DNA of 64,000 bases from NCBI GenBank assembly GCA_018433865.1, contig JAHDQJ010000006.1:1-64000 (forward strand), written 5' to 3'. This DNA is from Spirochaetales bacterium. GTDB lineage: Bacteria; Spirochaetota; Spirochaetia; Sphaerochaetales; Sphaerochaetaceae. The translations under genes and the position numbers were made by a program. Of the stretch, positions 28,075-31,636 are shown in pieces. The notes under the pieces were generated by a model, which was not told the DNA's origin, ran no database searches, and saw only the letters and a program-made list of their open reading frames with translations. Numbering within the stretch: position 1 is the first letter of the stretch; each line of letters starts with the position of its first letter.

Positions 28075-28093
28075 GAAGGACATGCATGATCGG

Positions 28094-28129
28094 CAGGACG
28101 CTGCATGTGCGGCGTCCTGTTGTTTTTTC
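28094..28129 (+). terminator. terminator after rpsG
   Basis: CAGGACGC (28094-28101), a 10-nt loop, GCGTCCTG (28112-28119), then TTGTTTTTT. It separates the rpoBC-rpsLG transcript from tuf. Confidence 0.85.
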
Positions 28130-28156: not shown

Positions 28157-28185
28157 TTGACACAACTGTGCAAACTCTCTATATT
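28157..28185 (+). promoter_or_regulatory. strong promoter of tuf and the S10 cluster
   Basis: TTGACA (28157-28162), exactly 17 bp, TATATT (28180-28185): the best consensus match in the window. The predicted start is near 28192. Confidence 0.8.
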
Positions 28186-28189
28186 TGCA
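28169..28189. promoter_or_regulatory. dyad overlapping the tuf promoter
   Basis: TGCAAA (28169-28174), 9 nt, TTTGCA (28184-28189). The dyad is centred just upstream of the -10 and overlaps it. A third copy of TTTGCA lies upstream of the -35 (28132-28137), within TTTGCAC that mirrors GTGCAAA at 28168-28174. The arrangement fits a regulator-binding site, but the protein is unknown. Confidence 0.35.
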
Positions 28190-28407
28190 AAGGTGTCTGT
28201 ATGAAGGGGTGCTATGTGCCCATACGGACAACGTCAGAGCCAAACCGATCGTCCGGATGATTCCGTATGGATGATAAGGTGGTTCCAGGCTGCAGACTTT
28301 TGAAATCTGTACTATGTCGGTAGGCAACATTTGACCTGTCGACCTCTGGATCCTCCTTCCTTCCGCTTGAATTGTCCATCAGTCAGTTTGTCTCATTGTA
28401 TGACAGG

Positions 28408-28426
28408 TAAAGGCGTCTTGCCTTTA
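28408..28426 (+). promoter_or_regulatory. hairpin in the tuf leader
   Basis: Perfect stem TAAAGGC-GTCTT-GCCTTTA, 52 nt before the tuf start. It is followed 16 nt later by six T residues, so it is not a classical terminator. Confidence 0.4.
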
Positions 28427-28446
28427 TGGAGCATGATACAAATTTT

Positions 28447-28467
28447 TTGTGACTAGGATTGTCACAA
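28447..28467 (+). promoter_or_regulatory. hairpin abutting the tuf ribosome-binding site
   Basis: Perfect 7-bp stem TTGTGAC-TAGGATT-GTCACAA. The last base of the 3' arm is the first base of the AGGAGG ribosome-binding site (28467-28472), so folding could influence initiation or message stability. Confidence 0.5.
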
Positions 28468-28477
28468 GGAGGAACTG

Positions 28478-29668
<1,191 letters not shown>

Positions 29669-29679
29669 ATTTGACCAAT

Positions 29680-29721
29680 GTCTTGCCCGCACGCAGATGA
29701 TGCGGGCAAGACCCGTTTTTT
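29680..29721 (+). terminator. attenuator-like terminator between tuf and rpsJ
   Basis: A perfect 12-bp stem, GTCTTGCCCGCA (29680-29691) against TGCGGGCAAGAC (29701-29712), 9-nt loop, then CCG and six T residues (29716-29721). The T tract directly touches GGAGG (29722-29726), the ribosome-binding site of rpsJ. Termination here would give a tuf-only mRNA; read-through would express the ribosomal proteins. Confidence 0.75.
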
Positions 29722-29730
29722 GGAGGAATG

Positions 29731-30039
29731 ATGGCTAAGGATAGAATTCGGGTACGGCTGAGGGGTTTTGACATTGAGCTTGTTGAGCAGAGCGCTAAGG
29801 CTATCGTGCAGACAGTAGTGAAGGCTGGTGCCAAAGTCTCTGGCCCCGTACCTCTCCCGACTCGTATCAACAAATATACTGTTCTCAGATCGCCCCACGT
29901 GAACAAGAAATCCCGCGAACAGTTTGAGATGCGGACCCACAAGAGGCTGATTGACATTCTGGACCCTACATCGAAAGTCATGGATGCCCTCATGAAACTT
30001 GAGCTTCCTGCTGGCGTGGATGTAGAGATTAAACAGTAA
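29731..30039 (+). CDS. rpsJ: 30S ribosomal protein S10
   Basis: A 102-residue head protein that also serves as NusE in antitermination. The core is [10 protein letters not shown]-like ([20 protein letters not shown]) with [20 protein letters not shown]. Two ATG codons are adjacent; the second (29731) has the better distance from GGAGG. It opens the S10 cluster directly after the tuf attenuator. Confidence 0.97.
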
Positions 30040-30054
30040 GAGTTGAGGTAAGAG

Positions 30055-30675
30055 ATGTTAGGGCTTATCGGAAAAAAAATAGGAATGACACAGGTGTTTG
30101 ATGCCAATGGCCGACTGACTCCTGTGACAGTGATAAAAATAGAGGACAACGTGGTCGTCGAGAACCGTACCGTTGAGAAGAACGGGTACAATTCATGTGT
30201 GCTCGGCTCCTTCGAGATGAAGAAGAACCAGACGACCAAGCCGTATGCCGGACAGTTCAAGGATGTCACCACACCGAAGAAGACGCTCGTGGAGATGAGG
30301 GATTTCGATAAGGAAACCACCGTCGGCGAGGTTCTCGGAGTGGATGTGTTCAAGGATGTGCTGTTCGTCGATGTGGTCGGAACCTCCAAGGGAAAAGGTT
30401 TCCAGGGCGGTATGAAGCGCCACGGATTCGCCGGCGGTCGTGCAACCCACGGTTCCAAGTTCCACCGCGATATCGGTGGTACCGCAATGTCCTCCACCCC
30501 TGCACGTACGTTCAAGGGTCATAGGATGGCAGGGCGCATGGGTGCGGACCGGGTGACCGTTCAGAATCTTCGTGTTGTTCGTGTCGATGAAGAGATGCAG
30601 GTGCTCTTGGTGAAGGGAGCCATTCCCGGACCCACGCAGAGCGTTGTCATCGTACAGAAAGCGAAGAAGAAGTAG
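30055..30675 (+). CDS. rplC: 50S ribosomal protein L3
   Basis: A 206-residue early assembly protein reaching toward the peptidyl transferase centre. It starts [16 protein letters not shown] and has the long loop [16 protein letters not shown] with THGSKFHR. It ends in the basic run KAKKK. It lies 9 nt before rplD in standard order. Confidence 0.98.
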
Positions 30676-30684
30676 AGGCGAGAA

Positions 30685-31323
30685 ATGGAAACAAAGGTCT
30701 TTTCAATAAAAGGAGAGGAGTTGCGGACCATCACGCTCAACGATGAAGTCTTCAATCGAGAGGTGAGCGACGGATCGATTTACCACGCCGTGAACAATGA
30801 GCTGGCAAATCGTCGTGTCGGAACCGCTTGCACCAAGACCCGTGGCGAGGTGAACTACAGCAACACGAAGCCTTACAAGCAGAAGGGAACCGGTAATGCA
30901 CGCGCCGGAGACAAGAAGTCTCCGATCTGGGTTGGCGGCGGAACGATTTTCGGACCGAAGCCCCGTGATTACAGCTATACCCTTCCCAAGAAGGTGAAGC
31001 GCTTGGCGATGAAATCATTGCTTTCACTTTCCGTCCTCGAAGAGAGGCTTGCGGTTGTCGAGGATTTTACCATCGAAAACGGCAAGACCAAGGAATTGGC
31101 CGGAATCTTGCAGAATTTCGTCAAGGATAACAAGAGGACCGTTCTCATCCTGAAGGATGACGATGTGATGATGCGGCGCGCTGCCAGGAACATCCCTCAT
31201 CTCCGCGTTCTTTCCTATAACAGGCTTTCCGCGAAGGAACTCCTGTACGGAAGAAAGGTGTTGATGCTCGAGAGTGCTGCCAAGAATCTGAACGAGTTCT
31301 ACGGCGATACACAAGGGGTCTAA
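30685..31323 (+). CDS. rplD: 50S ribosomal protein L4
   Basis: A 212-residue protein that lines the exit tunnel. The extended loop [20 protein letters not shown] and [15 protein letters not shown] are diagnostic. In E. coli L4 also represses the S10 operon; no matching leader was recognised here. The stop is 1 nt before the rplW start. Confidence 0.97.
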
Positions 31324-31324
31324 C

Positions 31325-31627
31325 GTGAGAGCAGATCAAGTAATCATTCAGCCCGTGCTGACGGAGAAATCCAATCTGGCACGGGAGTCGGAAACCAAGA
31401 AGTACACGTTCAAGGTTGATCCTCGGGCCAACAAGTTCGAGATCATGCAGGCGGTGAAGGAGCTGTTCAGCGTCACTCCTGTGAAGTGCAACGTTATTTC
31501 TGTAAAGGGAAAGCCCAAATACACCCGCGGCAAGGGCGGTCACATCCTTGGAACAACCGGGGATTGGAAGAAGGCGATCATCACATTGGCCAAGGGTGAA
31601 GTCATCCAGGCAGTGGAAGGAATCTAG
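31325..31627 (+). CDS. rplW: 50S ribosomal protein L23
   Basis: A 100-residue tunnel-exit protein and docking site for trigger factor and SRP. It has IIQPVLTEKSNLARE near the start and VISVKGKPKYTRGKGG in the C-terminal half. It begins with GTG 1 nt after the rplD stop; AAGGGG precedes it, so translation is probably coupled. Confidence 0.96.
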   Translation: MRADQVIIQPVLTEKSNLARESETKKYTFKVDPRANKFEIMQAVKELFSVTPVKCNVISVKGKPKYTRGKGGHILGTTGDWKKAIITLAKGEVIQAVEGI

Positions 31628-31636
31628 GAGGAACAC

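What the first reader, a model, noticed from the sequence alone, without database searches (positions are those of the whole stretch)
29680..29726. Terminator whose T tract touches the rpsJ ribosome-binding site
A perfect 12-bp stem with six T residues separates tuf from the S10 cluster, and the T tract runs straight into GGAGG of rpsJ. This would let EF-Tu be made in excess while metering about 27 downstream genes. Ribosomes starting on rpsJ, or NusG/S10-type antitermination, could affect read-through. I know of no described S10 attenuator of this form, but I could not search.
Basis: partly seen in the sequence, partly recalled or inferred. Interest (0 to 1): 0.55.

Follow-up and report, generated by a model that had tools for sequence, protein, structure and literature searches.

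The report
Hairpin between tuf and S10 operon
Between the gene for the very abundant elongation factor Tu and a long run of ribosomal-protein genes, this spirochaete keeps an evolutionarily guarded RNA hairpin that most likely lets only part of the transcripts continue, although its U tract sits too far from the stem for an ordinary terminator.

Summary
In detail: a perfect 12-bp stem (29680-29691/29701-29712), T6 (29716-29721), then GGAGG (29722-29726), between tuf and rpsJ. The hairpin is a real, selected RNA structure. In the window's family (the one that holds Sphaerochaeta) all 109 junctions examined fold into a hairpin. In 49 distinct type-A spacers 13 of 14 pairs show compensatory changes. 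Hairpins also occur in most other families of the class, with or without a U tract.

It is not a textbook terminator. The T run lies 3-11 nt from the stem but touches the SD in 96 of 98 distinct family sequences. The tail score is weak. The same layout recurs at tsf-frr.

Best reading: an intra-operon 'meter', probably a weak terminator/pause, that makes tuf 3' ends and lets a fraction read into S10. RNA processing is the main rival; no RNA data were available. Ribosomes starting on rpsJ cannot influence the decision, since the SD is not yet transcribed. A conserved structured motif upstream of tuf, unmatched in Rfam, may be the more novel lead.

The parts
29680..29691 (+). 5' arm of the junction hairpin (GTCTTGCCCGCA)
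   Evidence: covariation
29692..29700 (+). hairpin loop, 9 nt, not conserved
29701..29712 (+). 3' arm of the junction hairpin (TGCGGGCAAGAC)
29713..29715 (+). 3-nt gap CCG between stem and U tract; the G is invariant in 49 of 49 type-A rows
29716..29721 (+). U6 tract
29722..29726 (+). rpsJ Shine-Dalgarno GGAGG, directly after the U tract
29731..30039 (+). rpsJ (S10), probable start ATGGCT at 29731
28478..29668 (+). tuf (EF-Tu)
28157..28185 (+). promoter-like site TTGACA-17-TATATT, presumed to drive tuf and the S10 cluster
   Evidence: consensus scan only
28091..28122 (+). canonical terminator-like hairpin after rpsG with T6 directly at the stem (contrast to the junction element)
28228..28294 (+). 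tuf-leader motif CCAAACC...AGGUGG (helix with AA bulge)

Best explanation
The hairpin-CCG-U6-GGAGG unit is an intra-operon metering element. RNA polymerase that has transcribed tuf from the promoter upstream of tuf pauses at the U6 with the 12-bp hairpin behind it. A fraction terminates there and leaves stable tuf mRNA with a hairpin 3' end. The rest, favoured by the 3-nt G+C gap and the short U tract, continues into rpsJ and the S10-spc-alpha genes. The U tract also lies directly upstream of the rpsJ SD, so it belongs to both signals. Shown: structure, covariation, conservation, position of the U tract, recurrence at tsf-frr. Inferred: partial termination, the tuf:S10 ratio, the role of the gap.
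For: Hairpin under selection: 13 of 14 pairs with compensatory changes, 91.6% of cells paired, 0 of 500 shuffles as high, slid controls 30-49% paired. All 109 junctions fold into a hairpin (109 loci from 108 of the 109 family genomes with a rpsJ match; one partial match, G067, not fetched). Folding z < -2 in 97 of 99 distinct family spacers and 67 of 78 other-class spacers. T5-T7 directly before GGAG in 106 of 109. No promoter-like site on the + strand from 28186 to 31636 in the consensus scan. The layout recurs after another elongation-factor gene: tsf / 12-bp hairpin-TG-T5-GGAGG / frr; a hairpin of -14 kcal/mol or better is present in 35 of 35 tsf-frr spacers of at least 40 nt, while 12 of 47 spacers are short without one. 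In some families of the class the U tract is directly at the stem, a good terminator form (class d > 0: 15 of 86 scored). Precedent from reading: internal operon terminators lower downstream genes in Methanococcus, ribosomal-protein/RNAP operons included (PMC10450193, passages).
Against: The U tract is not at the stem: distance 3 nt in 42 and 4-11 nt in 53 of 98 distinct family sequences (3 are artefacts of the stem finder). Its distance to the SD is 0 in 96 of 98, as if it belonged to the RBS. The terminator score (weights recalled) is above 0 in only 7 of 109 family junctions. Most other-class junctions have a hairpin but no T4 run next to the SD (29 of 88 have one). In 12 other family genomes U5-GGAGG-ATG also occurs without a hairpin: 4 of 25 non-rpsJ loci inspected (of 60 sites listed) had one of -15 kcal/mol or better. 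No RNA-seq.
Confidence: 0.5

Rival explanations
1. RNA processing and stabilisation: tuf and S10 are fully co-transcribed; an endonuclease cuts in the single-stranded G|UUUUUU stretch, and the hairpin then shields the tuf 3' end from exonucleases, so tuf mRNA outlives the S10 part.
For: The hairpin, not the U tract, is the class-wide constant; the nucleotide before the U tract is an invariant G in type A apart from rows with an inserted base, and the CCYG gap and lower stem are sequence-conserved in type A, which a terminator does not need; Leptospira transcribes fus-tuf-S10-spc-alpha as one very long unit (PMC2481283, discussion passage).
Against: No cleavage data; a U tract is not required by this model although T5-T7 precede GGAG in 106 of 109 family junctions; no nuclease was searched for in this genome.
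Confidence: 0.28
2. Translation element: the U tract next to the SD is an enhancer or standby site for ribosomal protein S1, and the hairpin only keeps the upstream RNA from folding over the start site.
For: U tract anchored to the SD, not to the stem; U5-SD sites without hairpins exist in relatives, for example upstream of a gene whose product reads like GAPDH by eye (L401).
Against: Not a general RBS feature here: among 243 SD-preceded starts on 364 kb the T run before the SD never exceeds 3 and T is 22% of the 6 nt before it (rpsJ itself was absent from that set because a longer antisense ORF displaced it).
Confidence: 0.12
3. Regulated attenuator or ribosomal-protein leader for S10 (bound by L4, S10 or another ribosomal protein).
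For: The lower stem GUCUUGCC/GGCAAGAC is sequence-conserved in type A; S10 operons are regulated in this way elsewhere (recalled; mentions).
Against: No Rfam family reaches its threshold; a single plain helix with a variable loop and no conserved internal loop; the alternative 5-bp hairpin found is not kept in the alignment (by eye).
Confidence: 0.07

Closest known systems
Canonical intrinsic (Rho-independent) terminator
   Same: GC-rich hairpin followed within a few nt by a U tract, downstream of a gene
Internal operon terminators (ioTTS), e.g. in ribosomal-protein/RNAP operons of Methanococcus maripaludis (PMC10450193)
   Same: between co-directional genes of a translation operon; proposed to lower downstream expression
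   Different: archaeal signals, proven experimentally; here a bacterial hairpin with the U tract fused to the SD
S10 leader attenuators (L4-dependent in E. coli, recalled; S10 r-leader of Firmicutes, mentioned in PMC7247131)
   Same: hairpin and U tract upstream of rpsJ
   Different: here in the tuf-rpsJ spacer of 59 nt, one helix, no Rfam match
Intercistronic stabilising hairpins such as malE-malF (recalled)
   Same: hairpin after the gene needed in excess
   Different: not a repeat element; one copy in the genome

Membership tests
Canonical intrinsic terminator | stable GC-rich hairpin | tested here: met
   12 bp, about -22 kcal/mol
Canonical intrinsic terminator | U-rich tract of about 7-10 nt immediately after the hairpin (definitions in PMC12207403 and PMC7445774, passages) | tested here: not met
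   gap CCG, U6; tail score -2.25; reported species medians -3.4 to -5.5
Canonical intrinsic terminator | transcript 3' ends or coverage drop at the U tract | not testable with these tools
   no RNA data
Internal operon (metering) terminator | lies between co-directional genes with no promoter in between | tested here: met
   59-nt spacer; consensus scan only
Internal operon (metering) terminator | upstream gene more abundant than downstream genes in transcript | not testable with these tools
   no expression data
Ribosomal-protein leader / S10 attenuator | match to a described leader family | tested here: not met
   Rfam 15: none at gathering; best E at the junction 4.3, unrelated families
Selected RNA structure (any kind) | compensatory base changes in relatives | tested here: met
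   13 of 14 pairs, 49 sequences, 0 of 500 shuffles

The most novel reading that the evidence does not exclude
A dedicated spirochaete junction element used after elongation-factor genes (tuf-rpsJ, tsf-frr). One U tract serves both a deliberately detuned terminator/pause and the ribosome-binding site of the next gene, with a sequence-conserved lower stem and CCYG gap that an unknown factor reads. Elongation-factor : ribosome stoichiometry would then be set, perhaps adjusted, at a single RNA site.
Probability: 0.17. Interest if true: 0.62.

Novelty: new variant of a known kind. Interest (0 to 1): 0.42.

Why it matters
EF-Tu is needed in several-fold excess over ribosomal proteins (recalled), yet here both appear to share one promoter. 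A hairpin kept at this junction in all 109 family junctions examined, and echoed at tsf-frr, gives a concrete and testable site for how bacteria set that ratio inside an operon. The 3-nt gap and the fusion with the SD make it a natural case for asking how far a terminator can be detuned.

Tried and rejected
Second hairpin CGGG-CAAGA-CCCG with T6 directly behind (scan hit 29702-29716), exclusive with the 12-bp stem: not kept in relatives (by eye). Pairing of leader CGAAU with AUUCG in rpsJ: window and several relatives have CCAAU or CUAAU with AUUCG unchanged; dropped. Repeat or mobile element: one copy. Rfam: nothing. 'Every U5-SD site has a hairpin' (3 of 3 in the own genome by my reading; the third, L347, folds weakly): not upheld in 12 other genomes. 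My stem finder over-extends into A-U pairs, so some gap values are negative or too small; the RNAfold-based gaps also vary. R1 searched in family and phylum: 56 places at E <= 1e-11, compared by eye with the rpsJ places and lying at rpsJ; next best 1.6e-4; it does not reach the other families with confidence, so sequence identity is family-level only. Phylum outside the class: in 14 of 30 genomes the spacer is under 35 nt, so the element is not phylum-wide. The Borrelia 3'-end paper (PMC10319736) mentions neither tuf nor the S10 operon in its main text by term search (the one 'S10' hit is in its reference list).

Full report
WHAT IS THERE. The window lies in contig C29 of a 2.9 Mb genome. Order of genes: rpsG, a terminator-like hairpin with T6 directly at the stem (28091-28122), a near-consensus promoter-like site (28157-28185), a leader of about 290 nt, tuf (28478-29668), then rpsJ, rplC and the following co-directional reading frames (genes beyond rplC were not identified by search here). 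The junction is stop - 11 nt - 12-bp hairpin - CCG - T6 - GGAGG - start.

IS IT REAL. One search found rpsJ in 109 of 139 family genomes. I read 109 junctions from 108 of them (G121 gave two contigs; the partial match of G067 was not fetched). tuf precedes rpsJ in all 109 and every spacer folds into a hairpin; 99 distinct spacers have median z -3.9, 97 of them below -2. They fall into type A (49 distinct spacers...GUCUUGCC-loop-GGCAAGRC-CYG-U6-GGAGGA) and type B (50: other stems, mostly ...GAUUUUUGGAGAUUUUU); L177, with a 166-nt spacer, was left out of both. On type A, 13 of 14 pairs show changes on both sides with the pair kept, and RNAalifold finds the same helix unprompted. I did not run the count on type B.

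IS IT A TERMINATOR. A canonical one has its U tract immediately behind the hairpin (PMC12207403, PMC7445774, passages). Here the T run starts 3 nt after the stem in 42 and 4-11 nt in 53 of 98 distinct family sequences, 3 more being artefacts of the stem finder; its distance to the SD is 0 in 96 of 98. The TransTermHP tail score (formula) is -2.25 for the window, median -2.54 in 100 distinct family sequences, 14 of them at or below -3.4; the rpsG terminator scores -5.56, and 11 hairpins picked on 364 kb of the contig score -3.25 to -5.96 (these were selected partly on the tail). In 86 scored junctions of other families of the class the median is -2.66, 23 at or below -3.4. So in the window's lineage the element is at best a weak terminator or hairpin pause, in a few families a good one, and in many it has no U tract at all (T4+ close to the SD in 29 of 88). 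The class sample is 90 loci that I chose from the 388 genomes to cover its families; 2 of 90 showed no tuf upstream.

WHAT ELSE LOOKS LIKE IT. TTTTTGGAGG-N2-10-ATG occurs three times in the own genome: at rpsJ, at frr and at an outer-membrane-like gene with its own promoter-like sequence (L347; identity judged by eye). At frr the upstream gene is tsf, and the spacer is a 12-bp hairpin, TG, T5, GGAGG. Of 50 frr loci inspected (of 131 genomes with frr among 138), 47 had tsf in view: 35 spacers of at least 40 nt all fold at -14 kcal/mol or better, 12 are under 20 nt; exact T5GGAG in 5 of 47. In 12 further family genomes the pattern had 60 sites; I inspected 30 loci, 5 of them rpsJ; of the other 25 (two of which, L418 and L429, are the same site read twice), 4 have a hairpin of -15 kcal/mol or better in the 45 nt before it. 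One of these four (L407) is a hairpin directly on T6 before a gene that reads like a sugar ABC-transporter ATPase, again a place where the gene before is usually needed in excess (by eye, recalled).

HOW IT MOST LIKELY WORKS. The S10 cluster has no room for a promoter behind the hairpin and no promoter-like site in front of it within tuf, so its transcripts must pass the hairpin. In Leptospira the fus-tuf-S10-spc-alpha locus is one transcript (PMC2481283, discussion passage). EF-Tu is needed in excess (recalled). A hairpin that turns part of the transcripts into tuf-only mRNA, by weak termination (my choice, 0.5) or by cleavage and protection (0.28), solves this. The U tract fixed to the SD and the conserved G before it are the two facts that plain termination does not explain. 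The rpsJ SD is not yet transcribed when RNA polymerase is on the U tract, so initiation on rpsJ cannot govern the choice; a ribosome finishing tuf, 11 nt upstream of the stem, could.

WHAT IS BEYOND THE FINDING. The tuf leader is more striking than the junction. 26 distinct family sequences are conserved in blocks over about 250 nt, with no meaningful Rfam match. A core CCAAACC...AGGUGG (one helix with an AA bulge and covarying flanks) lies upstream of tuf in 26 of 29 family loci, 18 of 39 other spirochaete loci and 0 of 17 non-spirochaete loci (found by a pattern that fixes the core). Its flanking pairs covary (covariation score 0.40 against 0.20 in shuffles, 0 of 500; pairs with double change 9, reached by 86 of 500 shuffles). 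A model from 18 sequences finds it again upstream of tuf in further loci. In the window and 300 kb more of the contig it finds the tuf leader at E 1.1e-9 and one chance-level hit at 0.64. In four loci (L277, L281, L283, L284) it lies before, not after, a promoter-like site, so it may belong to the preceding transcript there.

Noticed in passing
window 28192-28477, core 28228-28294: Strongly conserved, structured tuf leader with a CCAAACC...AGGUGG helix found upstream of tuf in many Spirochaetia; no meaningful Rfam match. Candidate new leader RNA.
   Followed up: partly
window 28440-28477: A hairpin UUGUGAC-loop-GUCACAA sits directly on the tuf SD (GGAGG); visible with small variations in the 29 of 30 family loci where the tuf start was in view (by eye).
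   Followed up: no
L349 1451-1520 (own genome, contig C34): tsf-frr junction has the same layout: 12-bp hairpin, TG, T5, GGAGG; hairpin kept in 35 of 47 family junctions read.
   Followed up: partly
L407: Hairpin directly followed by T6-GGAGG before a gene that reads like an ABC-transporter ATPase.
   Followed up: no
L401, L420: U6-7 tract directly before the SD without a hairpin, upstream of genes that read like GAPDH and transketolase (by eye).
   Followed up: no
window 29728-29733: Two in-frame ATGs; the second (29731) aligns in all 49 type-A relatives and is the likely rpsJ start.
   Followed up: yes
L177: One family member carries the element followed by about 100 extra nt before rpsJ; insertion or assembly fault not checked.
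   Followed up: no
contig C29, 364 kb: Only 11 canonical-looking terminators behind genes by my score; the genome may rely little on intrinsic termination.
   Followed up: no
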